From Paragorgia papillata (Eukaryota > Cnidaria > Anthozoa > Scleralcyonacea > Coralliidae), in the NCBI GenBank assembly GCA_035771165.1, contig JAWNZC010000322.1, forward strand, positions 6,992,501 to 7,056,500: a stretch of 64,000 nucleotides of DNA, given 5' to 3'. A model generated the notes under the pieces. It worked only from the letters and a program-made list of their open reading frames with translations. It had not been told where the DNA came from and searched no databases. Position 1 is the stretch's first letter; each line of letters begins with the position of its first letter. Shown one piece after another: positions 23,041 to 64,000 of this stretch. A program made the position numbers and the translations under genes.

Positions 23041-23057
23041 TGTATTATTATTATTAC

Positions 23058-23120
<63 letters not shown>

Positions 23121-24062: not shown

Positions 24063-24639
24063 ATAATGAAAATGCTGAGTGAGCCTCCTCGGCTTCTATA
24101 GGGAACTGGTTGGGAAACGCATAGTGTCACCATGACGCAAACTTGAAAAACGTCGTGGACAAATTCAATTCACGTCAAAACTTGGACTAAATAGTCCGTA
24201 AGAAAATGCACTAATGAGTTACATTTTTAAGGTTTTATGAATATTATTCCTTTTCTTTGCACATAAAATGAAATACATGGCTAGAAATCCAGGACACTCA
24301 GCGGCAGTGGCCTGTGGGCTCATATTTAGATGGAATATTAATTTGAAAATTCTGATGGCTAAATATCGATCATTTCGGCTATAAACAGAAGCCTATAGCA
24401 ATAAATTAAAGTAGAGTTATTCGCTAAAATGTCTTATTGACCCATTTCTTACCCAAATATCAAATTACAAAAGGTTTAATCGTCTAGACAGGCCTGTACC
24501 CTCATACTCACAAAAATTGCCGCATAAATTTCGGTTATTATTTCTGAATCCACAGTCACATTTAATAATAATAACAGCGCTTAAGACCCTGGCAACCTAG
24601 CAACAGCTCCATAAGAAATGGTGGACAATAATCCGAAAT

Positions 24640-26517: not shown

Positions 26518-27200
26518 GACAATAAAATGGTGGCCATACTGGTGTACCAAAACATTGAAATGGTGGCCATACTGGTGTACCAAAACAATGAAATGGTGGC
26601 CATACTGGTGTACCCAAACAATGAAATGGTGCAGGCCATACTAGTGTAGCAAAACATTGAGATGGTGGCTATACTGCCTGGTGTACCAAAACAATGAGAT
26701 GGTGGCCATACTGGTGAACCAAAACATTGAAATGGCAGCCATACTGGTGTAGCAAAACATTGAAATGGTGGCCATACTGGTGTACCAAAACATTGAAATG
26801 GTGGCCATACTGGTGTACCAAAACATTGAAATGGTGGCCATACTGGTGTACCAAAACAATGAAATGGTGGCCATACTGGTGTACCAAAACAATGAAATGG
26901 TGGCCATACTGGTGTAGCAAAACCGTTGAAATGGTGGCCATATTGGTGAACCAAAATAATGAAATGGTAGCCATACTGGTGTACCAAAACAATGAAATAG
27001 TGGCCAATCAGGCATTACTGGTGTACCAAAACAATAAAATGGTGGCCATACTGGTGTACCAAAACATTGAAATGGTGGCCATACTGGTGTACCAAAACAG
27101 TGAAATGGTGGCCATATTGGTGTACCAAAACAATGAAATGCCAGCCATACTGGTGTACCAAAACATTGAAATGGTCGGCCATATTGGTGTACCCAAACAA
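26518..27200. repeat. 33 bp minisatellite, about 20 copies
   Basis: About 20 head-to-tail copies of a 33 bp unit carry TGGTGGCCATACTGGTGTAC and then CAAAACAWTGAAA. Because 33 is divisible by 3, every frame stays open on both strands, giving long spurious peptides such as repeated VHQYGHHFNVL. Variants (GTAGC for GTACC, TATTGG for TACTGG, small insertions near 26630, 26670 and 27005) are scattered, so the array is ageing. Coding meaning is unlikely, since all frames are open equally. Confidence 0.9.
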
Positions 27201-27345
27201 TAATACACACTTGATGAAAGTACAGCAATGTATAAACTGTTTAATAACATCGACTTTTAGTCAAGACATCAGTACAATAGTAAACAATACAAGCAAAAAT
27301 AAAGCAAACCACAAATATTAATACAGTTATAGAGATTACTTCATG

Positions 27346-44601: not shown

Positions 44602-44903
44602 CAGGGGTGGATCCAGGGGGGTTATGGGGGTTGCAACCCCCCTTGGCCTATTATATATGTATTCTTTGAACGGTATATTACCAGTATATTTAATATATAT
44701 AATATATAAATTGTGTTTAGTGTATAATATAGTGTATAAAAATCACTATTTCTGATCCTAATATTGTGTTATTAAACTGCCCCCAAAATGCAGGAAATAG
44801 CATTTCAGGGTATCAGAAATCAAAAATTTTCTGGGGGAACATACCCCTGGACCCCCCTAGAGGCATCAACCCCCTCTTTAAAAAAATCCTGGATCCACCC
44901 CTG
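44602..44903. mobile_element. 302 bp MITE with proven empty site
   Basis: The termini are CAGGGGTGGATCCAGG and its inverted complement, and the direct repeat ATTAC flanks both sides (44597-44601 and 44904-44908). The mirror Harbinger copy near 47748 has a single ATTAC and no insertion, so boundaries and the 5 bp duplication are certain. The CAGGGGTGG end is hAT-like but a 5 bp duplication is not (hAT makes 8), so the superfamily is left open. Confidence 0.85.
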
Positions 44904-45049
44904 ATTACTACTCATTGTGAATTGTCATTGTGTGTCACTGTACATTGTACAGTCTATTTTATATAGTACAGTCATGAAAATACTGTATATTTTACCCACA
45001 ATGCTTTAACTTTTATTGGTATTTGTAATAATGTATTTGTGCACTTGTT

Positions 45050-46005
45050 GTATCTTCTTTCCTGCCTGGTTGCTGGATTGAGATAGGGAGTCATCAAGTA
45101 AGGATGACAGGCATATCCACTATCTCCCAGCAACACACCATTGTGTTCAGGGTGTGCTCTCCTCCATCAAGTGTCCTCCCCACCATTGATGTTCGGAATA
45201 TAAAAGAATCATGAATGGAACCAGGCCACTTTGCCACTACATTGGTTAGCCTACCTATATTTTTCCATTAAATATATAATTTCTTAAATAAAATGCTTGT
45301 TTTTTTTATTATTTTTTCTTTTACATGCTAAGCCATTTATGCCCTCATAGGGGGTTCACATAACCTGGGGTTCATACCGGTATAGGTATACATCATACAA
45401 AAACACTGGCAAAATTTCCTACTCAAATTCTAATTATTTTAACTTGTGTCCAAAAATGGTTAAGGGGTTATATGCTATAGAGTATTTGGTTTGTGTCAGG
45501 GGGTGGCGCATAGGAATGGGTTTCCCTACCATCAATTCAGTGCAGTAAATAGGTATATATTAGCCTTTTAAAATATAATTACTTAAATATTGTTTAATTC
45601 AATTTTTTTAAATTTTAATTTACTTTTGTCATCACGAATTACTTGCACATTGATACTATGAAATCCTTTCCAGTGGAAAGGATTGCAGTGTAAACACGGC
45701 TATAATTAGCTTCATTAGCCACGGGACCCTGGACTCGAACATGTGTTGCCATCTACCAAACCAATAACACAAGGAAAAGCAGCCAAGAGCTGTTCCTCTG
45801 CAGAAATTGAATGGTTACGGTGGGATATTGGCTGGATTTTCTCTGCTATTAGTGCTGCTATAAAACGTATGGAGTCTTTTCCAAACCGTTATCTATGTAG
45901 AAACTCATCTGACTCTTCGAAATTAACATAACGATTTAAATACTCGAGGTAAGCGATTTCTTCGTCGAAATTCAGTGTCATAAAGGAATTGCCTAAGTAT
46001 GGCTG
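45050..46005 (-). pseudogene. Harbinger transposase relic, left copy
   Basis: Minus strand from about 46005: the start of the protein (MTLNFDEEIAYLEYLNRYVN), then SVEEQLLAA, FPCVIGLVDG, and in 45060-45240 the GDSEYACHP segment. Stops and frameshifts are present and the insertion site seen in the right copy is deleted through here. Same product and same defects of the catalytic core as described for 46403-47640. Non-functional. Confidence 0.65.
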
Positions 46006-46402
46006 CCATATTAAACTTTTTTCTTAATCATAGTTAAGAAAGTTAATCATACTTTGGACCATGATTAACTTTAACGACATTTTAATCATGATTATCACTA
46101 ATCACTTTTTTATACAACGGGTTTAATCACCTTGTTAACTTTAATCACTTTTTAATCACAAAACGGGTGAGGCCCCAGGGGCCGGTTGTATAAAACTCTT
46201 AATCACTTTTTAATCACCCGTTTTGTGATTAAAAAGTGATTAAAGTTAACAAGGTGATTAAACCCGTTGTATAAAAAAGTGATTAGCGATAATCATGATT
46301 AAAATGTCGTTAAAGTTAATCATGGTCCAAAGTATGATTAACTTTCTTAACTATGATTAAGAAAAAAGTTTAATATGGCAGCCATACTTAGGCAATTCCT
46401 TT

Positions 46403-46999
46403 ATGACGCTGAATTTCGACGAAGAAATCGCTTACCTCGAGTATTTAAATCGTTATGTTAATTTCGAAGAGTCAAACGAGTTTCTACGTAGATACCGGTT
46501 TGGAAAAGACTCCATACGTTTTATAGCAGCACTAATAGCAGAGAAAATCCAGCCAATATCCCACCGTAACCATTCAATTTCTGTAGAGGAACAGCTCTTG
46601 GCTGCTTTTCCTTGTGTTATTGGTTTGGTAGATGGCATCATGGCAACACATATTCGAGTCCAGGGTCCCGTGGCTAATGAAGCTAATTATAGCCGTGTTT
46701 ACACTGCAAGCCTTGGCCTGGCCTGGCCTAACTTTGGCCTACATTTTGGCAGTGTAAACACGTCCTGGCTGGACAGAATATCTGGGCTTGCTTCTTTTGT
46801 TGGCCTATGCTTTGGCCTTGGCCAGGCTTGTGTCAGTGGCCATGCAGGCTTATGCCAGTGTAAACACGACACATTTACCCCAGGCCAGGCCATGGCTTGC
46901 AGTGTAAACATGGCTTATGTTAACCGGAAAGGATTTCATAGTATCAATGTGCAAGTAATTCGTGATGACAAAAGTAAATTAAAATTTAAAAACATTTAA
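46403..46999 (+). pseudogene. Harbinger (HARBI1-like) transposase, N-terminal and DDE-1 part
   Basis: Open for 198 codons. The order follows HARBI1-type transposases: RYRFGKDSIRFIAALIAEKI, then SVEEQLLAA, FPCVIGLVDG with the first catalytic Asp, NEANY and YVNRKGFHSINVQVI. Defects: the roughly 80-residue helical segment normally between SVEEQLLAA and FPCVIG is missing, three residues are inserted after VDG, and a 225 bp MITE splits NEANY from VNRKGF without breaking frame. The frame ends where the second catalytic region should start. Normal function would be cut-and-paste of elements with 3 bp targets. Confidence 0.75.
46691..46915. mobile_element. 225 bp MITE inside the Harbinger transposase
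   Basis: The ends AGCCGTGTTTACACTGCA and, inverted, AGCCATGTTTACACTGCA are flanked by TAT on both sides (46688-46690 and 46916-46918). The interior repeats GGCCTGGCC/TGGCCTT and the GTGTAAACA box. 225 plus 3 is a multiple of three with no stop in one frame, so the host reading frame survives. The left Harbinger copy retains only the first bases of it, so it was present before the two copies diverged. Confidence 0.75.
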
Positions 47000-47429
47000 T
47001 TAAACAATATTTAAATAATTATATTTTAAAAGGCTAATATATACCTATTTACTGCACTGAATTGATGGTAGGGGAAACCCGTTCCTATGCCCCAGCCCCT
47101 GACACAAACCAAATACTCTACAGCATATAACCCCTTAACCATTTTTAAACACAAGTTAAAATAAAAATAATTAGAATTTGAGTAGGAAATTTTGCCAGTG
47201 TTTTTGTATGATCTATACCTATACCAGTTATGAATGCCTAGCCTGCATAGCAGGCATTTCAGTAGGGGGTGGGGGTGAAAAAACAGGAGAGGGCGAGGCA
47301 GAGGTTATGTGACCCCCCAGGTTATGTGAACCCCCTACGAGGGCATAAATGGCCTAGCATGTAAAAGAAAAAATAATTAAAAAAAACAAGCATTCTATTT
47401 AAGAAATTATATATTTAATGGAAAAATAT

Positions 47430-47650
47430 AGGTAGGCTAACCAATGTAGTGGCAAAGTGGCCTGGTTCGATTCACGATTCTTTTATATTCCGAACATTAA
47501 TGGTGGGGAACACAATGGTGTGTTGCTGGGAGATAGTGAATATGCCTGTCATCCTTACTTGATGACTCCCTATCTCAATCTAGCAACCAGGCCAGAAAGA
47601 ACTAGATACAACCAGCACACAAATACATTATTACAAATACCAATAAAAGT
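47430..47650 (+). pseudogene. Harbinger transposase, C-terminal DDE part
   Basis: The frame reads WFDSRFFYIPN, then [20 protein letters not shown], then RPERTRYNQHTNT. This corresponds to the HARBI1 region with HDSR (second Asp, here FDSR) and LLGDSGYP-x-x-P-x-L-x-TP (third acidic region), followed by E-R-x-YN-x-H-x-x-TR. It is separated from the first part by about 430 non-coding bases (47000-47430), which may be an intron or a deletion scar. Part of the same dead gene as 46403-46999. Confidence 0.7.
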
Positions 47651-49439
47651 TAAAGCATTGTGGGTAAAATATATGGTATTTTCATGACTGTACTATATAA
47701 AATAAACTGTACAATGTACAGTGACACACAATGACAATTCACAATGAGTAGTAATGATAAAAATTGATAATAAAAACCCAGATTCAGAATTATACAAATT
47801 TTTACAGTATAAAAAGTATTTGTCCTTGAATTATTATTTATTGAACATGTACTCATTCCTATAATATACATCGAGAATAATACATGGATGTATGGAAATA
47901 TGAAATTTATTTTAAGTGCATGAAAAAAAAGTATATGTTCAAGCTTCCATGCAATGTTCATTATTTAAAAATAAAGCAGTAAACATCAATGTGTATAACA
48001 ATAATCAACACATGCAAGAATATTATGAATGTTGTAAAAGCTCTATCAAGCCCCACCCATGTTTTTCTAATTTTTGACATTGTAAATGGGGAGCTTAATA
48101 GAGCTCTTACAGTAATCACACAAGTCAGATTGATATGAATAGTGGCAGCTAGATAAAAAAACCATTTTATTTTACATACACTGTAATAGATATTGGGAAA
48201 GTAAATAACTGGGAAAGTAAACCCGACACTTGGCATGCATGTAGTTTTCTGGTAAGTCATTCCTGCTTGGGCCCTTGATAGGATATGGCTCACCAAAGTG
48301 AACCATTCCTTAGTTCATTTTTTGATGCTCCTTTTGCTATACAATTGACAGGGCTTGTTTTGCATCCTTAGTTCCTATGAGATAAATGAAAACCATCCTC
48401 ACCATTTTGAACAAAGTTAAAGAAGTCTAGTTCAAGCATGAAGTTACAAAAAATTATTAATGGTTTATTTTGTATATGTATGTATATTAATGTTAATATT
48501 AGAGATTATGCAAGTACAGTATCTCATGACTTGTTCATCTTGCTGTTGGTTACCAAAACAGTTGCCCTGCTGTTTCTTTACAGTGACACAGAGCTTCAAA
48601 CAAGTTTACTAATAATGAGATAAAATCAAAATGATGTTCTTGTTTATTCAAATCAGTCACCTACCAGTTCACTGCTTGGAAAACTGATCGAAAGCTATCC
48701 TTATCTATTTCTATTACCCTTGCCAGGTAGACATTACAATTACCAACATAGACATAATTACATTACTGCAGGCCCAACACATTTAAGACAAAAAATAGAA
48801 GAGCAAAAAAGAATTCTGTCATTCTCATGGCAGCAGAAGGATGCTGTTATTGATGGCCATCCTCTAGGTTGAACCTTCTTGAGAAGACCCAAGCAAATAC
48901 ACAATTACCAGACATTCAGAGCAGCTGGTACAGCACTGAGTCATCCTGTATATACATGTACAGTGCTATATATTAAAATGTTACTAATTCGTATGCAGTG
49001 ATTAAAAAACAAGAGAGTGGTATGACAAGAAGGTGATTGTAATCCAAAGCCAAATGAAAGATTTGAGCAAATTACAAGTTATGAAAAATGCTTACCAAGA
49101 AGTGCTGGTTCTTGTGCTTTTGTGGTTAAAACTATGCTTGTTCAGAACGAGCATAGTTTTAACCACAAAAGCACATGAACGCTGCAAAGGAGAGAGCTTT
49201 GTCCACCATATGTATTGATTAGAAAGTAAACAAAGTCAAAGATATTTATAACTCATTCACTCCGTTCTATATTGTTAAAATTGTTTGAATTAAAATGATT
49301 TCTCTAAACCTACCTTGTTTGTAAACTGCTTGCTTGAATCTTTTTCTTTTTCCCGTCTGTTTCATCACTTCGATCACGATTCATTTCATAATTTATATTC
49401 AAGTGGTGTCTGAAGCAGCATGTCACGGGACATTCCATT

Positions 49440-50990
49440 TAGTATCCGAACCCCCCCTATGGATGAGCCTTGCCGAAAATTTTACCTGTAGGAATCGGAC
49501 ATGTCACAGTTACTCGGTAGGAATCGTCATCAGTTTTTTCCACCCTTTGGAATCGGACATCTCACAGTTACTCGGTAGGAATCGTCATCAGTTTTTTCCA
49601 CCCTTGGCCCCTAGAAGTAGTCCAGCGTATATATCAGACCTGTAGACCTCTAAGGTCTTAAATATATAGTGAGCAGCGAAAGAATGCATGTTTATTTACT
49701 ATTTCTATTAAAAAAAAGTTCTTGAGCAAACCATGAAATGATGATTGTATCAGAATTAATATTTTTAGGCATACTATGTAAAAACCCCGATTAAAATCAT
49801 ACTGATACTAGTCGCAATATTTGTCTGTCCGTTGACTATTGAAGACAGCTCGAGAATAACTGCACATTCTGACACCATTGGTTTATTCAATTGCACAGGC
49901 AGTGGCTTATTACACAAATATTGCGAAACTGAATAAGGTGTGATGGGCCACAGACAATTAGAATTTAAGTGACTTTATTCGACAATATGATGCAGGCCTG
50001 TTGGCAGACTGTAGTACACAGTAACAGGATCTGAAAATATGTGCTGTACTAAGCATTTTCGAAACGTTTTCGTAAAAGATCGTGTATTTTATAAGTACGA
50101 ACGAAAAAAAACACCCGGAGAACAGTTTAAGATCAATAATTTAATACCCACGATAACATAAACTTTGTCTTGACCTCTTGAATTCTGGCATCAATGCTCA
50201 CATCAAAGTACTTTTTTTAACACTGAAGAAGTGCAGGGAAATGATTGACCTTCATTTATGGTCAATCTCGGTTAATTAATGAAGCTTTAGACACTAGTAT
50301 TTCTCTCAGTTAAACTGACTGATTACCTATACTCAGTTATAATACTTCACATTTAGGCTACATTTATAATTCTCATAGTTTGTAAATCTCTATCCGATAG
50401 CAGTGCTGTGAGTATATTATTTGTGAACTATATAACTATTTACATTGGGTCATCACCTGGTTGGTTCAGATAATCTAACCCAGCACCTTCCCCTAACCCT
50501 AATCAATAAGGAGCATATGAAGGAATTGATAATCAACAATGTGATTGGTTACTTATAGCCAATCATAAAACTTGTTCACATTGGTAGGTCTTTACTGTTT
50601 ACAATATTTGGCTTAGAAATTTAACTAGGTATACCGATTTACAATTGAATATATCTTTACAGTATTTAGCTTCCTAAGGTTATTTTGATATAATAAATGT
50701 ATGACTTATTAATATGTTCAATTTGACTATTTCTGTGCAGTCATAACTACATTTGGCTGAACTTGGGCATCTATTAAAATAGGCATGCTATGCATGCATG
50801 TGTCTATACTGCTATAATTAATTGTATATTGGTAATTAATAGAGGCGTGATTATAAGATGTTTTAATGTTTTGATTTTAATATAGACTCCATGCATATCT
50901 GTTACATAACTATCACAATTAATATTCAACTAAATATAAATAAGATGCATTATACGACTAGAGGTCCACCTTTTCAAACACACAGTCACA
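49440..50990. other. No certain gene; 58 bp tandem duplicate near 49493-49610
   Basis: Two copies of a 58 bp unit containing CACAGTTACTCGGTAGGAAT lie at 49493-49550 and 49552-49609. A 55-codon open stretch at 49771-49938, preceded by TTTTTAG, encodes a hydrophobic run (IKIILILVAIFVCPL) and could be a transmembrane exon, but its phase does not fit exon 3. The rest is A+T-rich with no recognised feature. Confidence 0.4.
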
Positions 50991-51101
50991 AAGATTAGAC
51001 TAATAACCGTTCCAGAGTTAACAGTTAACAGAGTTAACAGCTAGCTTCCGGAGTTACACAGCTTCCAATGTTACACAACTTTCGGAGTTGGGTAATTCCA
51101 C

Positions 51102-51846
51102 GTGACGGACGTTACATTCAAAGGATTTTTTAGAAATAAATTATCTTATATCTCTTTAGCTATTATATCTTGGCCCACACTTTTTTTCTACAATGATAAG
51201 TAATTACAATATCTATCTCATGAAAAAGTCCAATTTACTGAAATCTGCACTAGTCGGCTACAATCGGTATTTGTATGTGCGTGACGGACGTTACACAAAA
51301 TGGACAAAGACTTTTACCACATAATTTGTAATAAATTTTGTCTTCAAACTTTTCTAGACCAGATAAAATGTTTATGACATAACATTTAACAACAGAACAA
51401 ATTATATATATTGGAGGTAATTTACTGTCAATCTCCTTTCCAGGGGGGAGCAGAGGCCAAAGATGCCGTGACGGACGTTACGTGACGGACGTTACAAAAT
51501 CGACCACTGCAATAATAATATAAAACTAACTTGCCTATTATAAAAAATATAATGCCAAGTTCCAGAATACCTGTTTTAAGTATGATTTCTCTAGTCTTAC
51601 AGTTATCTAACGTTTGAGAAATTGTAGTGTTCCCAAGCATTGACCAATCCTGGACAAAGACGTTTACCGTATATGTTTAAATATATGTTGTCTTGCAAAT
51701 TTAATGATAAAAGATAAAAGTTTCATGACATAACATTTAACAAAAGGACAAATTATCTATATTGAAGGTAGTTTACAGTCAATCTCCTTTCCAGGGGGGA
51801 GGAGAGGCCAAAGATGCCGTGACGGACGTTACGTGACGGACGTTAC
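51102..51846. repeat. GTGACGGACGTTAC motif array, left part
   Basis: Exact 14-mers lie at 51102, 51281, 51468, 51482, 51819 and 51833, with two pairs directly abutting. The last two pairs are carried by a diverged tandem duplication of about 350 bp (51296-51495 against 51650-51846) that also shares TCAATCTCCTTTCCAGGGGG. Degenerate GTTACA boxes lie just upstream (51050-51080). All are in the same orientation. No protein is encoded. Confidence 0.9.
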
Positions 51847-52067
51847 AAAATCGCCAACTTTAATAATCAACTATAAAACTGTGGCAAAAGCCAAAGTAAC
51901 TGTCAAATATTGTTTATAGAGAACTTATATATAAATATATACTAAGAATAAGAATAAGATATCTTGGCGTGTCTTTGAGCAGCAGTGAGTGGAAGTGGCA
52001 TTACTTCCAACCCTGCTTCCAACAAATAATTTTAAATTTAGTATCTTTCCAGACAGCATGCCTAACC

Positions 52068-53167
52068 CAGTGAACTCGACGATGTAAGTTAAAATGTGAT
52101 ACCTGGAACGCTAACGAAGAACCAAAAAGTGAGGCAAAAAGTTCCAGGCCCTTGCGCGGTTTGCAGGTACGATTCAGTCTCCCACAAAATGTTTTTTACA
52201 CGGCCGCCCGTCTTGAGCGAACTGCGAAGGCTCGAAAAAAGGTTTGAAAAAATTATTTATCAGACTAAACGTGCATTTAATGGTTTCCCGTTGTTGTGCA
52301 GCGCTGTTGTTGTTTTATTTACTGTATAGCAATCCAAAACTATACAGTAAATTAAGCTAGGGATGAAAATAGGCTGAGAAAACAGACGTCCGACGCCTTT
52401 TGCTGGCTAGGATGAAAACAGCCAGCCGAAAAGGTGAGAACAAGAGTGAGAAAGCTATTCTTGTACGAGTTTGAAGACGTATTGATACTTGATATTTCAT
52501 AATATACATCTAATGTCATTTTCTTATTTCTGCTCCTTTAATTTCTTGTTCAGTTTTGTTAAACGGCCTTTTGTAACTAATGATATTTTAAGAAATATAA
52601 ACTGACAACTTGATTGTTTATTTTTCACGTTTACTCATGGCTAGTTGTTGTTTTCGGTACGAATGCGGAATGCTTTTTAAACAAAACGAATTGATGAAAC
52701 TGGTACTAAGCTAAACGGCATATTCTATACTAAGTTTGTGTTGATTTTTTGTATCCTCTTCGGAGTGACGAAACTCTAATATATATGGTTTATAATATAA
52801 CGAAAATTTGATTTAATTTCTTCACTGACAAACTTCGTGCACGTTTTGTAAAGACAATGACTTTTCCTATAGCAACAAATAGACAATCACTGCATAATTA
52901 GTTCGGCAGCATAGCACAACCAATCAAAATTTAAAATGCACGTTTAGCAAAGCGTGATAAAATGATTCAATAAATAATTTTTCAAACCTTTTCGAGTCTT
53001 CGCAGTTCGCTCAAGACCGGTGACCGTGTAAAAAACATTTTGTGGGAGACTGAATCGTACCTGCAAACCGCGCAAGGGCCTGGAACTTTTTGCCTCACTT
53101 TTTGCCCCCCGAATGACTGGACGTTAGCGTTCCAGGTATCACATTTTAACTTACATCGAGTTCACTG
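52068..53167. mobile_element. 1.1 kb hAT-like non-autonomous element, 8 bp TSD
   Basis: It starts CAGTGAACTCGACGATGTAA and ends in its inverted complement (CGAGTTCACTG). TIR similarity continues for about 190 bases through ACCTGGAACGCTAACG and TGCAGGTACGATTCAGTCTC. The direct repeat GCCTAACC flanks exactly (52060-52067 and 53168-53175). CAGTG ends with an 8 bp duplication are hAT characters. No transposase frame is present. It interrupts the GTGACGGACGTTAC array, so it is younger. Confidence 0.85.
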
Positions 53168-53307
53168 GCCTAACCATACAGCATCAAAACTGGTCAGCAG
53201 TAATGCTATTAGGGGTATATACATCATGTAGTACCAGTGATACTATTTTCTTTTTTAAATGCAATAAAAGTTGTATTGATAAGTGACATCTCTACCCACT
53301 TTTGAAT

Positions 53308-53503
53308 GTGACGGACGTTACATGTGACGGACGTTACATAATTTAACGATTAATTGTTGTGCACGTGTGTAACTTTTTGGGGGTTTTATCAGTTTTTCAT
53401 ACTTGTTCATACATAAAGTAACAAAATAAGTTGTACTTCATTAATTCAGAGTACTACTTTGCAACAGAAATAAACTTTGGCAATATTTCGTGATGGATGT
53501 TAC
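53308..53503. repeat. GTGACGGACGTTAC motif array, right part
   Basis: Two exact copies at 53308 and 53324 (2 bases apart) and one degenerate copy, GTGATGGATGTTAC, at 53490. Same orientation as the left part. It ends about 470 bases from the stop codon of the minus-strand integrase-like gene. Confidence 0.9.
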
Positions 53504-53976
53504 ATGAAATTTTGAATGTTGTAGTTTAATTAAATAATTATAAGTTCAAAAATATTTACTGACCAATAAACCATTTTTTCTTACATATATATGCCTAATG
53601 TTGCTAGCATTAAGAATATAACTCCTGTATAGCCCTAATACATAACATTATTCCAGTCTCAAATAAGCTCTTATACTTACTACTCCAAAACTACAAAAAA
53701 TGTCCTTTACTCTTGGACCCTTCAAAATTCACAGTAATCAATATTTTTAGGGATTCTGCTCAATTTATGTTATTTAGGTCTATTTTCTACCATAATCACT
53801 AAAATATTTTGTAAAATTCACAAATTAATTTTTTTATGAATGCCAACTCTACCGTGGAATTGCCCAGTTACACAACTTCATTTCTTTTCACACCTTTTTC
53901 ACTTTGTCATTGCAGCACTGTCCGAGAGGGCTATATAGTCTATAGTTTATATTAATTTTATCAAACTTATAAAATT
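53504..53976. other. 3' flank of the integrase-like gene, no gene
   Basis: A+T-rich, non-coding on both strands. I see no clear polyadenylation signal close to the stop codon on the minus strand. Confidence 0.4.
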
Positions 53977-56900
53977 TTAGTTTGAAGCAGACAGTTTTAT
54001 CTTCCCATGCGTGATCAACTCTGTCACATCTTCTGAGTACACTTCGTTTGGCACCTTTCTATATATAACATCTATTTTGTCATCATGAGGATAAAATGCC
54101 TGTACTTCAGCAGCGTACCAGCCCGGTTGCCATCCAGTTGCATCAACTTCATATTTATCCCATTTGACTAAAATATTTGTACCAATTTCGGTGAATCTGT
54201 CATACAGGTCGGAACCAACACTTGGACAATTTGCTAAACGTAATGTTCCTTTTTCAACACTCTGATTCACCTTTACGTGGTAAATACTTTCTGGTTCACT
54301 GAAGTATACAATTGCTACCTCATCAGTCAATGTGTTATAGCTCTGCACCTTCGCTGCATACCAGCCAGGTTTCCAATTGCCATTATTGTCTTCATCGGTC
54401 CACTTTACAACCACTCTTGTATTACAAGTTTGTATTGCCTCTAGATTCTCCGGGTCTAGTCGTTTTTCGATGGCTCTGCTAGTTGCTAGTATGGATTGTA
54501 GTAGTTGATAGAATATTTCTGGTAGGGTATCTAAAGTTGTTCCTTCTGGAACTGGAGCCTTCTCACATACTTGTGATTGTGGAATTCCAGCAGCTTGCCG
54601 TGGTCGGTAAAGTGTTTTTTCCGCAGTCTCAGACGTTGGAAACGCTCTTTTTCGCACTACTAACTCCTTTTCTACGACATTTATGGAGATTTGAGCATAG
54701 ATCAGTTTCTTGGCGATATCGATCGTGTCCAGGAGTCCTTCTCGTTCTCTCTTGAAAAGGAGGTGCGTGGTACCTGTTCTCAAAGCCAGAACACGTAAAA
54801 CAAGTTGGTCTTTAGAACCAGTAAAGGGAATATTATGAAATCGGAGAAACTGTTTTAGTTTAAATATGGGAAGTTTCTTTATTTCAGTAATACTTGATGG
54901 TATGTCGGCTATGTTTCCCCTATACTTTTCTAACTCACTGGGCTTCTGAAGTCCAAGTTTATTCGATAGTTTTTCAACAAGTCGACTTTTTGTGTCCTGT
55001 GCGTCTAGCTTGTTCTTAATGCACATGTTTTCTAGTTTCTCTTTTGAGTTCGCATAAAGCTTGTGAGTTCTCCATTTTGCACGGTGCATTGTTTCCAAGT
55101 AATCCTTCTCTGCTTCTTGCACTTTGTTTTCCAGGTATCTTTGAACATCACTGTGTGGGCACCAACACAAACGAGAAATTTCTTTAATGAAAAGATCGGA
55201 CATATAAGGGTCTGCAACATAAGCCATATCAAGAAGTCTTGATGGAAGGAAAAGTTCTTTAACATCGTCCCAAGGTCCATAATCAAGTTCTTTCCTTTGT
55301 TCAAATGTCATATAATGATATTCACCACCAGTGATATACCAGCGAACGTAATCAGGAAGAGGTTGTTCCCAGATGTTTTGTATTATGGACTGTTCATTAA
55401 ATATGACAGTTGTGTACTTGTCTGTCCATACGGTTCGGCGTTCAAGTGTGTTACATACAATTTCGTAATCTTCTGTATAAGTTCCAGAAAAATTTGGATT
55501 TACTTCCCAAATGTCAATTAAATCTTGAAAAATTTTTGAATTCTTGTTGGGAGCGTAGTACATTTCACACTTTTCTTTCTTGTCTTCATTAAGTCGAAGG
55601 AATTTCTCTAAATTTTTTGCGTCATTGAAAACAAAATTGATTTCCTCTCCAATTCCATTCATTACTAATGTACGAGTGCCACCAAAGCTTGCCATTTTCA
55701 GTTGTTCTCTTACATCTTCTCTTAGCTTTCCCATTTCATTTTTGTGTTCTTCGGTGTCAGTGTGCAAATCTTTTTTCAAGTGAAACGGACCATGCTTCTC
55801 CAGTTGTTTAGTGTGAACTGCATGGACTCTTTCAACGGGATTTCGTTTGCTGTGATATTCTGCGTACGATACTTGTATGACAGTCTCAAATCCCAAAAAC
55901 CTTCGGAGTCGAACTAGAAGCATCTTCACCATTGGACTCCTCGGCATTTCAACTCCATTATCCACTACCGAAACCATTACTTCTTTTAGTTTTCCAGTTT
56001 TGGGATTTCGAAAAAAACTATCGAGAGCAGGTAAAGTCATTAAATACAACAGTTCATTCAGAGAACGAAGGGCAGTTTCTGGCTCGTAGTAAGATAAATT
56101 TAGTAGAGTTACTGCCTTACCAGATCTTTTTATATGAATTGTTATTTCTTTGCGTGGCGATGTCGTCATGAGGAGTTCTTGGATATGTTGGTTACTGTTG
56201 AAAGTAATGTTTTTTTCTGTTTCCTTGGTCTCCACAAACAAGTGGGTCATTGGCGTAACAGCATTCGTTCGCGTTGTGTCAAAGGTGTGATCAGGATTTT
56301 CTATATTTTTCCAGGTTTTGCCACCAAACCCCAAATTAGGTCGGATGACTTGCTTGGCATCACGAGAGTCGACACAATAACATTCTTTGTTTCTTGATGC
56401 CTGGTCCAAGATAAAGTTGACATTTGCTGACGTCCAGTGTGTATTTACGACTAAGTCCTTTATCGGCGCTGTATCTGGTGCTTTATGTAGCGATACACAG
56501 GCATTTATTCCTTTTCCCTCATGGTGCCGCCGGGCTTGATACGTTCCTTTCCTGTAGTTTTGCGTGTAGTTGAAGCACGTTGACAAACTTATGGAGAAGT
56601 CCTCCGGAGCCAACGCCATAATTGCTTCTTTGGCATCTTTCATTTTTGTCTTGTTATCTGCTGCTCTGTATAGAATATCGTTGTGCAATTTTGAGTGGCT
56701 TTCGAGACCACCTCCTCCACGTTCTCTGGTGTCTCCTTCGCCAAATTCATATTCCAGGACAGCTACCAAGTCTGGGAATTCTTCAAGTTTTAGTTTTCTT
56801 CCTATGTTACTTATATTGCGTCTCGATTTTATTGTGCGAAGTTTTTCAATCTGAAGTTTTCTTCGTAGCAGTTGTTTTTCTTGTTTCGGGGGTAACTCAC

Positions 56901-58017
56901 GTCCCTGAAGGTCCTTTCTCAATTTTTCGCGCAAATTTTCGAACTGGTTTAATTGTTGTGGAACCGAATCCCTGCATTTTTGTAGAGCTTGTTTGTTTTG
57001 TGTCATTTGGAGCCTGGCCATAAACTTAACGCTTGTAATTCTGGTAAGTATAAATTTCATCGTGTTGCTATCCCTTTCACTATCCATGTAGTCCAGCGCG
57101 GTATGATAAATGTCCCCTACTTCATTTTCAATGTGCTTGTTTAACTTTGATTTCAAATTATTTCTATCAAAAATAGCAGACATACATTCTATGAAATGTA
57201 TTAAAGGGCTAGTATCTTTGTTCTCCATAATAAAACCAGTCCCGTTTATATACACATGAATTATATTGATGTATTTTGAGAGCTTATCGTAAATTTCGGA
57301 AGAGGTTGTCCGAGGTCTTTTTGTGCGCTCATCTCCATTTTTGTCTAACTGCAGTTTATTGGCAGGTTCTCTTAAGATCTTTGATGCATCCTGTGTTTTT
57401 ATGATTGGAAATTTATTCTGTAAGTATTTAGCAACTTCTAAAATACCAGCAAAGTACGTCTGCTTTTCAACATCCTGATTATTCTTAATTTTTTCTTCTA
57501 GACCTTTCATGTTTTCCAAAAGCGATGTCGTTTGCATTTGATTACAATGAACTACAACTGTTTCTTTACCACCACCGGTCACATTAGTCTTAGTTAACGT
57601 TCGGCGTCGTTCTGCTCTCTGCTTGTTGGCTATTGCAAGTTCTCCCTGTGCCGTGTACCAACTTTTGGATGTTGCTAATGGCAGACTAGAGTTTACCTCG
57701 TATGTGGAGCTTAAGTTTAGATCTCCAGTGTCTTGATCCTTCTCGTCTATCTTATCAATGTTTTCTGCAGTATTGTGCATGCTTGTTAAGTCGCAAATAG
57801 ATCTATCATTATGGAATGTCCCCAGAGAAAAAGCAAGAGGTACCTCTTCAGTAATTCTGCAAATGCTCCTCAGTTTCGCTTGTTTTGACTTCCGACGATT
57901 CGCCGTTGAAGACGCAAAGGTAGATATGTTGTCATGCGTCACGTTTTTTGTTTTCGCACCCTGGAGTTTGGGTGACGATGGTTTCAGCGTTTGATTTGGT
58001 GTGCTAGAATTATCTTT
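53977..58017 (-). CDS. Integrase-like protein with two SAP-like and two Tudor/Agenet-like modules
   Basis: One uninterrupted frame of about 1,345 codons. Positions are counted from the GTG at 57942, which the frame reads through. 330-375: basic coiled-coil-like segment. 455-480: conserved-looking YTQNYRKGTYQARRHHEGKG. A DDE-type core is suggested by D525 (CYCVDSRD), D661 in VSVVDNG and E704 in SKRNPVERVH, with 42 residues between the last two. SAP-like helices lie at about 967-997 and 1024-1057. The tail has twin modules at 1173-1237 and 1255-1318, each with W-x-PGWYAA-x-VQ, resembling Tudor/Agenet chromatin readers. A transposase/integrase role is inferred. The first in-frame ATG after the upstream stop is at 57780, codon 55, so an independent start would lose the basic N-terminus, while readthrough from the preceding frame would keep it. 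I do not recognise a named family. Confidence 0.8.
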   Translation of the reverse strand, partial: KDNSSTPNQTLKPSSPKLQGAKTKNVTHDNISTFASSTANRRKSKQAKLRSICRITEEVPLAFSLGTFHNDRSICDLTSMHNTAENIDKIDEKDQDTGDLNLSSTYEVNSSLPLATSKSWYTAQGELAIANKQRAERRRTLTKTNVTGGGKETVVVHCNQMQTTSLLENMKGLEEKIKNNQDVEKQTYFAGILEVAKYLQNKFPIIKTQDASKILREPANKLQLDKNGDERTKRPRTTSSEIYDKLSKYINIIHVYINGTGFIMENKDTSPLIHFIECMSAIFDRNNLKSKLNKHIENEVGDIYHTALDYMDSERDSNTMKFILTRITSVKFMARLQMTQNKQALQKCRDSVPQQLNQFENLREKLRKDLQGRELPPKQEKQLLRRKLQIEKLRTIKSRRNISNIGRKLKLEEFPDLVAVLEYEFGEGDTRERGGGGLESHSKLHNDILYRAADNKTKMKDAKEAIMALAPEDFSISLSTCFNYTQNYRKGTYQARRHHEGKGINACVSLHKAPDTAPIKDLVVNTHWTSANVNFILDQASRNKECYCVDSRDAKQVIRPNLGFGGKTWKNIENPDHTFDTTRTNAVTPMTHLFVETKETEKNITFNSNQHIQELLMTTSPRKEITIHIKRSGKAVTLLNLSYYEPETALRSLNELLYLMTLPALDSFFRNPKTGKLKEVMVSVVDNGVEMPRSPMVKMLLVRLRRFLGFETVIQVSYAEYHSKRNPVERVHAVHTKQLEKHGPFHLKKDLHTDTEEHKNEMGKLREDVREQLKMASFGGTRTLVMNGIGEEINFVFNDAKNLEKFLRLNEDKKEKCEMYYAPNKNSKIFQDLIDIWEVNPNFSGTYTEDYEIVCNTLERRTVWTDKYTTVIFNEQSIIQNIWEQPLPDYVRWYITGGEYHYMTFEQRKELDYGPWDDVKELFLPSRLLDMAYVADPYMSDLFIKEISRLCWCPHSDVQRYLENKVQEAEKDYLETMHRAKWRTHKLYANSKEKLENMCIKNKLDAQDTKSRLVEKLSNKLGLQKPSELEKYRGNIADIPSSITEIKKLPIFKLKQFLRFHNIPFTGSKDQLVLRVLALRTGTTHLLFKREREGLLDTIDIAKKLIYAQISINVVEKELVVRKRAFPTSETAEKTLYRPRQAAGIPQSQVCEKAPVPEGTTLDTLPEIFYQLLQSILATSRAIEKRLDPENLEAIQTCNTRVVVKWTDEDNNGNWKPGWYAAKVQSYNTLTDEVAIVYFSEPESIYHVKVNQSVEKGTLRLANCPSVGSDLYDRFTEIGTNILVKWDKYEVDATGWQPGWYAAEVQAFYPHDDKIDVIYRKVPNEVYSEDVTELITHGKIKLSASN

Positions 58018-59154
58018 TTATTGATCCTTTTCTGTGCATTTTGGAAAATAGTTAGTGACACAAGTTTGATTGGCTCGTTTACTTGAGTTCGGACGTAAAG
58101 GACCTTCTGTGACCTTGTCTTGCTTTTCCTTTTTCATCTTCAACTTGACGCTTTTTGCTGATGAACCACGGTTTGGATTGGAGCAGACGGAACCATTTGC
58201 TGGTGTTGTATGGTTGTTGCCAGTGACAGTGGGTTGTTCCGTGACAGAGCTAGCACGACGTTTGGCTTTATTGACAGTGTTGATAAGATTAGGCTCTGAA
58301 AAAGAACGTTTATAATTAGCAGCAAACTTTCTGCAGTCTTGATTTTGGCCTTGGTCTTGAGTCGGTTTCGCATGACGATTGTCGATGCCGATGCACGTTT
58401 GTCTGACTTTCGATGAAGAGCGAGGACTCGGGCACTTTGTGGAGTCATGAGTGCGTTCTCTACGCCAGTTGTCGCAAGATTTCATGCTTGGTCGTGGATT
58501 ATCAGTAGGTTGATTGATTTGCAATGTACATGTAGATTTTTTTGCGTCACTTACACGTTTTGCCTTTGGAGATCCTTCTCTGGAAGTGAAAAGTTTGTTG
58601 TTCGATTCCGTCTGGTATTGCCTTTTGCGTGGAGATTTCATGCTTGGTCTTGCGGAATTATCAGTGAAGTTACCGGCTACATGCGCCTGTACAGATGAAG
58701 CACGATCGTGTAACTTTGTTGGTTTTTTTTCATTTGCAGCGACTTGACCACGGCGGTCTTCGTGACATTTAGGTTGATTGATTTGAAATGTAGATCTTTT
58801 CGCGTCACTTGCACTCTTTGCCTTTGGAGATTCTTCTCTGGAAGTGAAAAATTTGTTGTTCGATTCCGTCTGGTATTGCCTTTTGCGTGGCTTTGTGGAG
58901 GCCTGTTGCTTATCGTTATGGTACCGGTTAACATCTGCCTCAATAAAATTACTGTGCTTCGCTTTAGGCATCGCCATTGATTTCATCTTCTTGCTATTAA
59001 TACTTTTTCCCATTGGCACTGATCTACTTTTCGTGAATTTTCGGCGGGAAAAAACGATCCAGTCTTCGTCTGCCACAATTTCCGTCATTAAAACAAAATG
59101 ATTGACTCTAAATTCTTTTGACCTATCTGGCCATCCTTGTGTACTTGTCCACAT
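58018..59154 (-). CDS. Basic linker ORF carrying the OTU His motif and internal repeats
   Basis: 378 codons, ATG at 59154, in the same frame as the integrase-like ORF and separated from it by a single TAA (58018-58020). Residues 1-22 (MWTSTQGW...VNHFVLM) look like the last strand of an OTU domain, with H19 in NHFV as the usual catalytic His, so this frame continues the upstream protease after a +1 shift. The rest is Lys/Arg/Ser-rich. A segment of about 41 residues with PRKRQYQTESNNK, FTSRE and SPKAK occurs twice (about 88-128 and 174-216), and a RPSMKS box recurs. It is probably a nucleic-acid-binding, disordered linker. An alternative independent start is the ATG at 59088. Confidence 0.6.
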   Translation of the reverse strand: MWTSTQGWPDRSKEFRVNHFVLMTEIVADEDWIVFSRRKFTKSRSVPMGKSINSKKMKSMAMPKAKHSNFIEADVNRYHNDKQQASTKPRKRQYQTESNNKFFTSREESPKAKSASDAKRSTFQINQPKCHEDRRGQVAANEKKPTKLHDRASSVQAHVAGNFTDNSARPSMKSPRKRQYQTESNNKLFTSREGSPKAKRVSDAKKSTCTLQINQPTDNPRPSMKSCDNWRRERTHDSTKCPSPRSSSKVRQTCIGIDNRHAKPTQDQGQNQDCRKFAANYKRSFSEPNLINTVNKAKRRASSVTEQPTVTGNNHTTPANGSVCSNPNRGSSAKSVKLKMKKEKQDKVTEGPLRPNSSKRANQTCVTNYFPKCTEKDQ

Positions 59155-59884
59155 CAGACATACGGTTGCGAGGGTAGCTAGTACTAGCCTGGGGTTCTAC
59201 ATTTGCCCCAGTGTCAGTGACTTTTCTTGGATTATAGATGCCATTAAGTAATGGCAACATACAATGGCGTTTGTCAGGATAAAGCATACTAATATTGCAT
59301 TCCATGGCAGAAGAAAGTCCCATAATTTGCAAAAGACCAGAGAAACAACCAAGTTGTACTGTTCTCTTTATTTCATGCTTTAGTGCAGCTTGGAATCCGT
59401 GTTTATGTAACTGTTCATAGGACTTTGCCGAAAAGACTGTTGCCGTATACATTCCCTCAATGCTGTAATTCTTGTTAGTCTTACTGTTCTTCGACACTGG
59501 TATAGTTGCTTTGGTTATTACTGGGTGGTTTGCGTAAAAATCTGGATTGAGAATCAGTTATATTGCAGTACGTAACCGAAGTTCGGTGGCCAGTCTTGCA
59601 GAACCACAAACAGCCATACTTGCAGCGTTAAACAAACAGTTTCCATCACCCAAAGTCTGTATGGGTTTGATAGTAGAATTGTTAGTTGGATCAGATATTT
59701 GTGGCAAAATGGAAAGAGCTACAATGTCAATCTTTGTTCGATCAAACACCACTTCTTTTACCCGACTCAAATCAATGGGATTGCAATAGTTTGCCTTTAA
59801 TATAACTGCGATTTCTTGCAAATGACCAAAGCTTTTCGCTGCAGATAGGTGTCTGAGGTCGTCAACGGGATTTCGAATAGCCAT
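59123..59884 (-). pseudogene. OTU-like cysteine protease, N-terminal part, one internal stop
   Basis: ATG at 59882-59884. The frame contains TLGDGNCLFNAASMAVCG, with D80 and the nucleophile C83 of an OTU peptidase, then ELRLRTAI. A TAA (59558-59560) follows, and the same frame resumes at once with LILNPDFYANHP and runs through GCFSGLLQIMGLSSAM and MLYPDKRHCMLPLLNGIYNP to 59123. The protein similarity crosses the stop without loss, so the stop is a point change, an assembly error or a readthrough site. The domain's His is in the overlapping next frame (59154). OTU enzymes remove ubiquitin-like modifiers. OTU domains are known in some Helentrons and LINEs, but neither a Rep/helicase nor an RT was found here. 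Confidence 0.65.
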
Positions 59885-60093
59885 AGCGAATAATGAAAAG
59901 CGCCAATAATTACAACTGCCAAAAGGCCGGTTTCCCGCGGTTCCTGTGGCGATGCAAAACGCTTTGCTTACGTCACAGATAATTCACTGCAATTTACTCG
60001 TGCTTCACGAAGTTGCTCATACACAATTACAGTCAAAGTTTTATATCATTATCAAAGAGTGGAAACTACTATAGAGGTACCAAGACAAAAATC
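59885..60093. promoter_or_regulatory. Candidate divergent promoter interval
   Basis: About 210 bases lie between the minus-strand OTU start (59884) and a possible + strand ATG (60094). They contain TTACGTCACAG (59964), close to a CRE/ATF half-site context, but no clear TATA box. Bidirectional promoter function is inferred from layout only. Confidence 0.25.
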
Positions 60094-60118
60094 ATGGCAA
60101 GTAAAAGCAAGAATGGAG
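60094..60118 (+). CDS. Possible first coding exon of a divergent gene
   Basis: AATCATGGCAAGTAAAAGCA opens MASKSKNG and meets GGAG|GTAAGTG, a consensus donor, after 25 bases (phase 1). The start context (purine-rich, ATGG) is good. No downstream exon was recognised within the next 3.9 kb, so this could be chance. If real, its gene diverges from the OTU/integrase block. Confidence 0.25.
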
Positions 60119-60870
60119 GTAAGTGTGACTATATACTATATTCGAGTGTAAAAAAGTAGAGACTAGTAATAAAATGTAAAGCAAAAAATGGTAACGCAAC
60201 AGATTCAATATATTTAACGATGTTTCGAGTTTCGTTTCAGTACTCTCTCAGTCTCTGATAAATGCCACGACTCCGCTCAAAACTCTGGTATTTTGTTGCT
60301 TAAAATCCTGACGGTTCACCACCTTTTCGTTTTGTGGGCTATATTCCTGAGTTTATATCATTGAATCGAGAATAATAATTATACATCGGCTCATGAGTGA
60401 GCAACGCGAACGTAGGAAATGCCGCCGGTTCAAGTGGTCAACACGAGAAATAACATTCATTATGAATGATTCATACTTCCCAAGCATCCATTTATTGTTT
60501 ATGTTTATTGTATAAAACTAGTCCTTTAGATTTGTCCCTTTGCCACAAAGAAGATAGAAAAAGTATAAAAAATATTGTTGTTTATACTTGTTCCGTTCGT
60601 ACAAAATTGTAATTTTCTTCATGAGTTTTAAATGGCTTCCTTCGTGACCTTATTAATTTTTTCGACAACCGGAATATTCATTATAATAGATTATTAAGCG
60701 CCTAAGTAAAACTAACAACTTTTGCTGCCCTTGCCACAACGTTGTCTTGAAAACGTGAAAACGCGTCACTTGACGTTTGATGTGCAACGAGAATGGTGTT
60801 GGTATTTATACTCTTGGGACTGCAAGTTATTCAACGCTTGGTTTTGGTTGAAAAATACTATTGTCCTTCA
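60119..60870. other. No gene recognised
   Basis: A+T-rich sequence between the possible exon and the Tc1-like element. No further exon, RNA gene or inverted repeat identified. Confidence 0.45.
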
Positions 60871-61051
60871 TACTGCGATTCCCAGTTGAGTTTGGAACGC
60901 CTATAGTTTTGACGAAATGCGAGGCATGTTGTCAAGGCGTGGCCAAGTTGTTGTCAAGCCGTTCTATTGTGATTATCACTAGTTGTCAACTTGACTGGCT
61001 TTCTCATTGCTTTGTCTTGCTGTTTAATAGCGCCAAAACTACACAAACTAC

Positions 61052-61779
61052 ATGGATAGAGTAAGCACAAGAGGAAGAACGTATTACCAAAGCCGATGAT
61101 GCACGGCATGGCCCCAAAAAATCACGTCATGATTTCTGTCCAAAACATTGACGAATCCGTCTGCATTCCTAAACCTTTTTGGCTGGATAATTCAAAAGTT
61201 GCAAATGACCAATCATATTGCAGTGATCTCACGGTGTCAATTTCAAAGGCTAACGAATGCAGACAGATTTTCAGCGAAAAACATGACATGTTTATTTTGG
61301 GCCACGCCGCGCATCATCGGTTTTGGTATAAATACGTGAAAGGTCGCGCTTTAGGAAATGACTTGCGAAGTCTAATTATTGACGAAATAATTATTGGTGG
61401 CAGCGACTCAGAGACCGGTTATTTCAACGGGAACTTCAAAACTGTAGCAGAAAAATTTAAAGTCAGTAACACGACGGTTAAAAACCTTTGGGTTGCTTTT
61501 TGCAATAATAAAACGATAAATCCACGTCCACACAAAGGAGGAAATCCAAGTCACCTTAGCCAAGGAGATCTCGAATTTATAGAGCCTCTAGTTAGTGCAA
61601 ACCCAAGCATATCAAATCGGGAACTGCTTAGAGAACTTGATAAATATGGTGATATATTTGGCGGGACATCTCGTTCGGCACTATCAAGAACGCTTCATTG
61701 CCGAATGTTAACAGGAAAAGAGTACACGCACAAAAAGATTACTACCGTTGCTAATGAACGATTTACTGAAGTTACATGA
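61052..61779 (+). pseudogene. Tc1/mariner-type transposase, HTH region only
   Basis: The ATG at 61052 opens MDRVSTRGRT in the left TIR, interrupted by a MITE at 61084. The frame after the MITE, VKGRALGNDLRSLIIDEIII then FKTVAEKFKVSNTTVKNLWV, then a Gly/Pro linker and LSQGDLEFIEPLVSANPSIS, is a paired-like double helix-turn-helix of the Tc1/IS630 group. It stops at 61779, before any catalytic Asp. The uninterrupted frame beginning at 61096 fuses about 79 MITE-encoded residues to this DNA-binding part. That fusion would lack nuclease activity. It might still bind the element's ends, but nothing shows it is expressed. Confidence 0.65.
61084..61332. mobile_element. 249 bp MITE nested in the Tc1-like left TIR
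   Basis: TTACCAAAGCCGATGATGCA is inverted at the right end (TGATGCGCGGC in reverse, then CCAAAACCGATGATG). TA duplications lie at 61082-61083 and 61333-61334. The uninterrupted right TIR (61915-61925) gives the empty site, so boundaries are well supported. Non-coding in origin although open in one frame. Confidence 0.8.
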
Positions 61780-61934
61780 TATACACACAGTTGTTTATAA
61801 ATTACCTTTATATTTAAACCGGTCTCTGAGTCGCCGCCACCAATAATTATTTCATCAATAATTAGACTTCGCAAGCCATTTCCTAAAGCGCGACCTTTCA
61901 CGTACGTTCTTCCTCTTGTGCTTACTCTATCCAT
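61695..61934 (-). pseudogene. Mirror 5' fragment of the Tc1-like transposase in the right TIR
   Basis: The minus-strand ATG at 61932-61934 opens MDRVSTRGRTYVKGRALGNG, then LRSLIIDEIIIGGGDSETG, the uninterrupted version of the N-terminus seen in the left TIR. After ETG the frame leaves transposase sequence. It shows that the TIR captured the gene's 5' end. Confidence 0.6.
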
Positions 61935-62152
61935 GTAGTTTGTGTAGTTTTGGCGCTATTAAACAGCAAGACAAAGCGATGAGAAAGCCAGTCAAGTTGA
62001 CAACTAGTGATGAATCACAATATAGAACTGCTTGACAACAACTTGGCCACGCCTTGACAACATGCCTCGCATTACGTCAAAACTGTTTGTTCAAACGTCG
62101 AAACATTACGACAAAACTATAGGCGTTCCAAACTCAACTGGGAATCGCAGTA

Positions 62153-62639
62153 GGTCGTTCGTTGTGACGTTCGCGTTGTGCTTGCTTTAATAATATATAG
62201 TGTCATTGATTGAACTAACTTATTTGCTTAACAACAAATTTTACCAAAATGATCGCTTGCATATAAGAATTCCAAGAGACGTTTCAAACAGCACAGGGCG
62301 AACACATATATGTAGGCGCCCAGTACTTGCCTATTTTTTTCTTCCATGTTTACATGTGAAAACAGGAACTCCGCCACTAGGACGTTGCATATAATATTTG
62401 CCAACTTTCTCGATCGCTTCTCTTCATTTTCGTTTACAGGTAAACTACGTCAAGTGTTCCTTCTTTTAGTTGCAAACTTGATTGCAATTTTGATTTACTT
62501 CCTTTGCAAATTTGCAAATTTCCAATCAAATTTCCAACATTCCTATAGGAAATTCACTTCCTGTTAAATTTTCCTAAGGTTCCTGTTTTAATTTCCTAAC
62601 TTCCTGTTTTGCGTAGTAGTATTTTATTATGTTTTTTAC
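62153..62639. other. No gene recognised
   Basis: Contains repeated TTCCTA/TTCCTGTTTT-type stretches near 62540-62610. No exon identified. Confidence 0.45.
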
Positions 62640-63296
62640 TTTCAAAAGGTTGCTCAAAAATAAAAATTATATATATGAAGGCTTATATACATATTATTTC
62701 GAAAACGAAGAAGCAAATTCAAAACTAAAACTTGGTTTGACAAGCCGTTAGGTTCGAATCGCCACCACACCCCCAAATTTAAACGTAAACAAAGGCGCCT
62801 GGTTTTAAAATTTAGAGTCCGTTGGTGTTTTCATTGTAGCTTCAAATTTAAAAAACCTTGCTGGTCGGTAGCTTGATTTATGTTACGCACTAAAAGATTG
62901 ACTTGCAAACCCGAGCGAAATTAGTATTCGACATGTATCATGCAGAAGGCATTTTTTTAAATATTAAGTGAATCACGAGTACTAAAAATATTGTTCGGGT
63001 TTGCAAATCGGTTGGTCGAACAGGAAAATATCACCAGTTGCATGATTTATATAGCGAGCGACCAGCAAGGTTTTGAAAATTTGAAAGTACAATGAACACC
63101 AATTACGTACTCTTTGTTTACGTGAATATATTTATACGTCTCGTTCGTTGCAGAGGCGGCGATCCGAACGTAACGGTTTATCAAACCGAGCCAAGTAGAA
63201 TATAATGTGTTTGAGTTTTGGATTTGTTTCTTCGAACAAGAAATTATAAGTATAGTTCACATGCAATTAAGTAATTTATATTTTTGAGCAACGTTT
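62640..63296. mobile_element. Element with diverged long TIRs
   Basis: AAAAGGTTGCTCAAAAATAA at 62645 is inverted as TTATATTTTTGAGCAACGTT near 63290. The arms match imperfectly for about 240 bases, including ACTTGGTTTGACAAGCCGTT against a diverged inverse near 63165-63190, and CAAACCCGA on both sides of the centre. No coding capacity; an old MITE. Confidence 0.6.
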
Positions 63297-63550
63297 TGAC
63301 GCTTGGCGGTATCGTGTGACACATATCAGGGGCGGATTTAGCATACATCAGACCAGTCACGCGACTGACGTAAAAAATCACAAGAATAATTGCGCAATAA
63401 GACAATATTTTAATCTCAAGAGTCTTCTAGAAAATGTTATGGTGCGACTGCTTTGGCTTGGCCTTCAGTGATCGCAGAGATTGGGTTTTATCTTAGTTTG
63501 CGAGTCAGCAAACACCGGGCAGAGATGACAGGTGGTCAGCGTTTGCTTTG
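63297..63550. other. No gene recognised
   Basis: CAGGGGCGGATTTAGCATAC near 63328 resembles the start of CAGGGGTGGATCC-type elements such as 44602, but no matching far end was found. Confidence 0.35.
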
Positions 63551-63553
63551 AGA

Positions 63554-63745
63554 GTTTTGCTGGATCTGCACCATGGCAACCACTTTTTTGCTGGATTTGC
63601 CTCAAACCTGATTGGCTCTCGCGTTGATTTCAAGCGTTTTGCTGGATCTGCACCATGGCAACCACTTTTTGCTGGATTTGCCTCAAACCTGATTGGCTCT
63701 CGCGTTGATTTCAAGCGTTTTGCTGGATCTGCACCATGGCTTGCT
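63554..63745. repeat. 81 bp minisatellite, about 2.3 copies
   Basis: Units start near GTTTTGCTGGATCTGCACCA at 63555, 63638 and 63718, and include GATTGGCTCTCGCGTTGATT. The two full copies differ by a single T in a T-run. A unit length near 81 keeps frames open, giving a spurious repeated peptide. Confidence 0.9.
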
Positions 63746-64000
63746 GAAAATTGGATTGCTGAGTCAGCTGAGATACTGAGTAATTAGATTTATATTCATC
63801 GTCATCGAAGCTTCTCACTTCTCACAGCTGTGTTTCAGTCATGAGTTCTGTAAGCGTTTTCGAATGGGTTTTAGCTGCTTACACAGTCATCGATTTGTTT
63901 CAACCGGAGTAACATTTAATAGACGCGATTGGAAGCATTTCGAGCTTCTCAATTTTGGCGCGGAGTCATTTATTCTTCCCCCACTGCTGTAAGGTAAGAC

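What the first reader, a model, noticed from the sequence alone, without database searches (positions are those of the whole stretch)
53977..59884. Uncharacterised mobile-element polyprotein: OTU protease + basic repeats + DDE-like integrase + SAP + twin Tudor/Agenet
Seen: consecutive minus-strand frames encode GDGNCLFNAAS (OTU), NHFV (OTU His), duplicated PRKRQYQTESNNK linker repeats, a D525/D661/E704 candidate triad with VVDNG and NPVERVH, two SAP-like helices and two W-x-PGWYAA-x-VQ modules. Known: OTU occurs in some Helentrons and LINEs, SAP and Tudor-type modules bind DNA or chromatin. Inference: a self-contained integrating element that combines deubiquitination with chromatin targeting. 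I do not know a named superfamily with this architecture, and no RT, Rep or helicase motif is present.
Basis: partly seen in the sequence, partly recalled or inferred. Interest (0 to 1): 0.85.

Follow-up and report, generated by a model that had tools for sequence, protein, structure and literature searches.

The report
Decayed OTU-integrase-SAP-Tudor transposon copy
This stretch is a broken copy of a large, apparently unnamed animal jumping-gene protein that joins a ubiquitin-cutting protease, a retrovirus-integrase-like enzyme and chromatin-reading modules, and its protease domain is a relative of a disabled domain in the vertebrate backbone gene vertnin.

The parts
59189..59884 (-). N-terminal OTU cysteine protease (GDGNC Cys codon 59636-59638), with an in-frame TAA at 59558-59560
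58948..59211 (-). end of OTU with the NHFV His, after a frame change between about 59123 and 59196
   Evidence: tblastn of P0002 residues 236-328; sequence
58018..58948 (-). basic low-complexity linker with a 103-nt duplication (58530-58632, 58788-58890); ends in TAA 58018-58020
   Evidence: the matching region of P0098 (265-484) is predicted at very low confidence, as disorder would be
56418..58017 (-). region upstream of the integrase core; from about 57579 down conserved and mostly helical
55672..56418 (-). RNase H-fold DDE integrase core; D528 (56359-56361), D661 (55960-55962), E704 (55831-55833)
54769..55068 (-). two SAP-like helical modules
   Evidence: Pfam SAP E 0.0012 here (below its cut-off), 4e-10 in P0025; THO1 SAP weak profile match, E 0.09
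54226..54444 (-). first Tudor-like barrel
   Evidence: PHF1, UHRF1 Tudor rows
53983..54231 (-). second Tudor-like barrel

Best explanation
A decayed copy of a multi-copy integrase-type DNA transposon of marine invertebrates. One large protein (about 1,700-2,000 aa in the longest relatives) carries an N-terminal OTU deubiquitinase, a long probably disordered linker, a helical region, an RNase H-fold integrase with 43-44 positions between second Asp and Glu, two SAP modules and one or two Tudor modules. Shown here: the ORF and its breaks, the predicted folds, invariant catalytic residues, and abundant relatives. Inferred: the integrase joins element ends to target DNA as retroviral integrases do; SAP holds DNA ends or A/T-rich DNA; the Tudor pair reads methylated histone tails to choose chromatin for insertion; the OTU removes ubiquitin from the integrase complex or from repair and chromatin proteins so that the intermediate survives.
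Confidence: 0.78

Rival explanations
1. It is a large or fused member of the already named IS3EU/GingerRoot superfamily (or another Repbase entry), so the element is known and only the architecture is undescribed.
For: Like IS3EU/GingerRoot it lacks an HHCC finger and has an integrase-like core. Vertnin, whose OTU-like domain is related, carries an IS3/IS911-type HTH.
Against: First catalytic Asp lies 689-1362 residues from the N-terminus in the 18 OTU-plus-triad relatives, against 100-300 described. The words OTU, SAP and Tudor do not occur in that paper's main text.
Confidence: 0.3
2. It is a fragment of an LTR retrotransposon or retrovirus-like element that has lost its RT.
For: The integrase fold is closest to retroviral integrases among the chains compared.
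Against: Long relatives (P0002, P0025, P0030, P0065) have no RT, RNase H or gag match in Pfam at E <= 0.1; no direct-repeat ends; no HHCC-like Cys column conserved.
Confidence: 0.07
3. It is a multigene host family, not a mobile element: OTU-integrase proteins domesticated long ago and duplicated.
For: The OTU is kept with the Cys/His pair in nearly all rows that reach those columns, and vertnin shows that a related domain does serve as a host gene.
Against: Invariant DDE triad, high cluster sizes and divergent records in one genome, decay of the window copy.
Confidence: 0.12

Closest known systems
Ginger1 DNA transposons (PMC2836005)
   Same: integrase-type transposase fused to an OTU protease, animals including Hydra
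   Different: Ginger1 has OTU or Ulp1 at the C-terminus, an H2C2 zinc finger, GPY/F and about 400 aa of Gypsy integrase; here OTU is N-terminal, no conserved Cys pairs, plus SAP and Tudor
IS3EU/GingerRoot and IS481EU (PMC10045372)
   Same: integrase-like DDE core without HHCC
   Different: first Asp 100-300 aa from the N-terminus in IS3EU and IS481EU; OTU, SAP and Tudor not mentioned; termini not comparable here
Retroviral integrases (PFV, SIV, MVV, HIV)
   Different: no RT or gag partner, core spans about 245 model residues against about 140 aligned, 43-44 positions from second Asp to Glu, different flanking domains
Vertnin (VRTN)
   Same: OTU-like domain: 125-156 bits to this family's OTU profile
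   Different: vertnin lost the Cys and His and carries HTH motifs in place of integrase, SAP and Tudor
Helitrons/Helentrons with OTU (PMC2836005 mentions Helitron OTU)
   Same: OTU in a mobile-element protein
   Different: no Rep or helicase match here

Membership tests
DDE/D RNase H transposase-integrase superfamily | RNase H topology | tested here: met
DDE/D RNase H transposase-integrase superfamily | three invariant acidic residues on strand 1, after strand 4 and on the core's last helix | tested here: met
   D528 77/77, D661 75/75 with 2 gaps, E704 77/77
OTU cysteine protease | OTU fold with Cys and His | tested here: met
   Fold tested in relative P0098; Cys 21 of 23, His 35 of 35 among rows with those columns filled. 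Pfam OTU is below its cut-off in the window and just above it in P0095
Ginger1 | OTU or Ulp1 at the C-terminus | tested here: not met
   OTU Cys precedes the triad in 18 of 18 OTU-plus-triad relatives
Ginger1 | H2C2 zinc finger upstream of the core | tested here: not met
   no Cys column reaches 93% in 77 rows; 0-2 CxxC in seven long relatives
Ginger1 | CCGG/CCGT TSD and 40-270 bp TIR | tested here: inconclusive
   no ends found
IS3EU/GingerRoot | no HHCC motif | tested here: met
IS3EU/GingerRoot | first catalytic Asp 100-300 residues from the N-terminus (said of IS3EU in PMC10045372) | tested here: not met
   Asp at 689-1362 in the 18 relatives
IS3EU/GingerRoot | TA..TA termini and 6-bp TSD | tested here: inconclusive
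   ends not found
IS3EU/GingerRoot | phylogenetic grouping of the DDE core | not testable with these tools
   no reference sequences available
Helentron | Rep and helicase domains | tested here: not met
   no such Pfam match in the window pieces or four long relatives
LTR retrotransposon | reverse transcriptase and LTRs | tested here: not met
   no RT in Pfam in the window pieces or four long relatives; no long direct repeats flanking

The most novel reading that the evidence does not exclude
This is an unnamed superfamily of eukaryotic DNA transposons that carries its own deubiquitinase and histone-reading tail, and the OTU domain of one of its lineages was co-opted in vertebrates, lost its catalytic residues and became the N-terminal domain of vertnin, a regulator of vertebral number.
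Probability: 0.33. Interest if true: 0.86.

Novelty: new variant of a known kind. Interest (0 to 1): 0.64.

Why it matters
An element that unites integration, deubiquitination and histone reading in one protein would make two ideas directly testable: that transposons protect their intermediates by deubiquitination, and that DNA transposons pick chromatin by reading histone marks. [quoted passage not shown]

Tried and rejected
TIR/TSD search: candidate left ends at 49000-51074 and 53885-53975 against right ends at 59990-60849 and 62170-63979, with an exact 4, 5, 6 or 8-bp TSD; the best score, 9.5, is reached or exceeded by 6 of 20 shuffles, so no ends are claimed. Blastn between the flanks: best E 0.015, a 27-bp A/T-rich direct match.

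Scans of viral contigs and genome contigs with alignment A1 found no relatives: 31 and 41 pattern matches, none confirmed; records of the window's own genome may be left out of those scans. Foldseek against viral models gave nothing with E <= 0.001. NCBIfam gave no relevant family. PDB sequence searches with the window ORF (one chance match at E 1) and with P0065 (none at E <= 1) gave no relative.

A link between vertnin's HTH repeats and the helical region before the DDE core was tested and rejected: best vertnin domain 1.2 bits, best shuffled decoy 2.5 bits. Whether vertnin is nested inside the transposon OTU tree cannot be said: the tree is unrooted, the fork that holds vertnin is itself open, and P0103 and P0091 are long branches; 3 of the 28 OTU rows (P0056, P0058, P0073, short) were dropped and 7 of 120 vertnins used. 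A first count of OTU catalytic residues was biased, because its rows had been picked by an HFV motif; one search repeats it on all 136 relatives by profile match, and that count is the one reported. P0017 has no HFV motif: its OTU is interrupted by tandem repeats.

Literature searches: searches returned 0 papers for OTU + transposon/integrase/transposase + SAP + Tudor; (at least 3 of 5 terms) returned 3 papers, of which only the Ginger paper concerns an OTU-bearing transposase by its title and abstract; vertnin + transposase returned 2 papers. Searches were broader. Only open PMC papers are covered, so 'not in print' is limited to that library. Papers seen: passages of PMC2836005, PMC3024977, PMC10318531 and PMC10027918 (the last holds neither VRTN nor OTU in its main text); of PMC10045372 the abstract, introduction, methods, most of the results and the discussion; the rest as search listings.

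Full report
What is there. On the minus strand, 53977-58017 is one stop-free stretch of 1,346 codons. Upstream, the same protein continues in pieces: 58018-59196 after an in-frame TAA, then, after a frame change between about 59123 and 59196, 59123-59557, and after a second in-frame TAA, 59558-59983. A relative without breaks, P0002 (1,893 aa), aligns across the pieces in order (24-255, 236-328, 437-1892; 60% identity and E 0.0 for the main piece). The start is also shared: MAIRNPVDDLRHLSAAKSF here, VIRNPCEDLHVLSTTRSF in P0002. So this is one gene, now dead; nothing in the alignment calls for an intron in the window copy. Tblastn with six relatives found no second copy in the window.

Relatives. 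Two searches returned 101 and 82 protein clusters, 136 different in all; each scored only the roughly 8,000 candidates sharing most words, so the lists are capped. Named sources are cnidarians (Desmophyllum, Oculina, Paramuricea, Exaiptasia, Clytia) and the mussel Mytilus. One record, P0110, has a source label that I recall as the Aurelia genome. Of the 136, 119 show the first-Asp motif, 111 the second, 111 the Glu motif and 98 all three; 20 have the OTU Cys motif and 18 have OTU Cys plus the whole triad. Many records are fragments, so these are lower bounds. The window's host was not identified; its nearest unnamed relatives are about 70-77% identical over 39-100% of the query.

What it is not. 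No RT, Rep or helicase family was matched in the window pieces or in four long relatives. One YIDD string occurs in P0017 among seven long relatives checked, taken here as chance. No HHCC-like Cys column is conserved. Ginger1, a known OTU-bearing integrase-type transposon, has the OTU at the other end of the protein, a zinc finger and GPY/F (PMC2836005, passages). IS3EU/GingerRoot is described as lacking HHCC, with TA..TA ends and 6-bp TSDs, and IS3EU with the first Asp 100-300 residues in (PMC10045372). Here the Asp is 689-1362 residues in and the ends are unknown, so membership stays open.

Ends. No LTR and no TIR plus TSD above shuffled flanks. The flanks are disturbed: a small non-autonomous element with 9 GTGACGGACGTTACA repeats sits about 110 bp beyond the stop codon (51090-53865), and a long-TIR, Tc1-like insertion (60871-62152) lies about 1 kb beyond the start. 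Mobility is therefore an inference from the invariant triad, the multi-copy relatives and the decay, not a demonstration.

Mechanism, with status. Shown by sequence and predicted fold: the domains and the catalytic residues. Inferred from families: strand transfer by the DDE core; DNA holding by SAP; methyl-histone reading by the Tudor pair; removal of ubiquitin by the OTU, perhaps from repair or chromatin proteins, in line with the repair role suggested for OTU and Ulp1 in Ginger1 (PMC2836005).

Verdict. A real and coherent element of a known broad kind (integrase-type DDE transposon) with an architecture I found in no paper of the searched library, plus a testable tie to a vertebrate developmental gene.

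Noticed in passing
window 51090-53865: Non-autonomous element with inverted ends GGG(T/C)AATTCCAC, apparent AGTT target duplication and 9 copies of GTGACGGACGTTACA (up to 2 mismatches) all on the + strand (0.03 expected); a hairpin MITE (52058-53177) sits inside it.
   Followed up: partly
window 1-11441 and 13199-24642: 11.4-kb stretch repeated in the same orientation at 99.96% identity; each copy holds two ORFs with identical translations, RT-like by eye. Recent duplication or assembly artefact.
   Followed up: partly
window 42498-49426: Large inverted repeat: several collinear arms (about 93-99% identical) in opposite orientation, with a Harbinger-like ORF at 46403-46999 (family name by eye only).
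   Followed up: no
window 60871-62152: Long-TIR insertion carrying a Tc1/mariner-like HTH ORF at 61096-61779 (family name by eye only).
   Followed up: no
window 26519-27201: Minisatellite array, read as FGTPVWPPF-like repeats in one frame.
   Followed up: no
P0137-P0256: Vertnin's dead OTU-like domain is a relative of this transposon family's OTU, closer than the solved OTU structures.
   Followed up: yes
window 60095-60125 (+): Short ATG-started frame running into GTAAGT on the + strand, possibly a divergent first exon.
   Followed up: no
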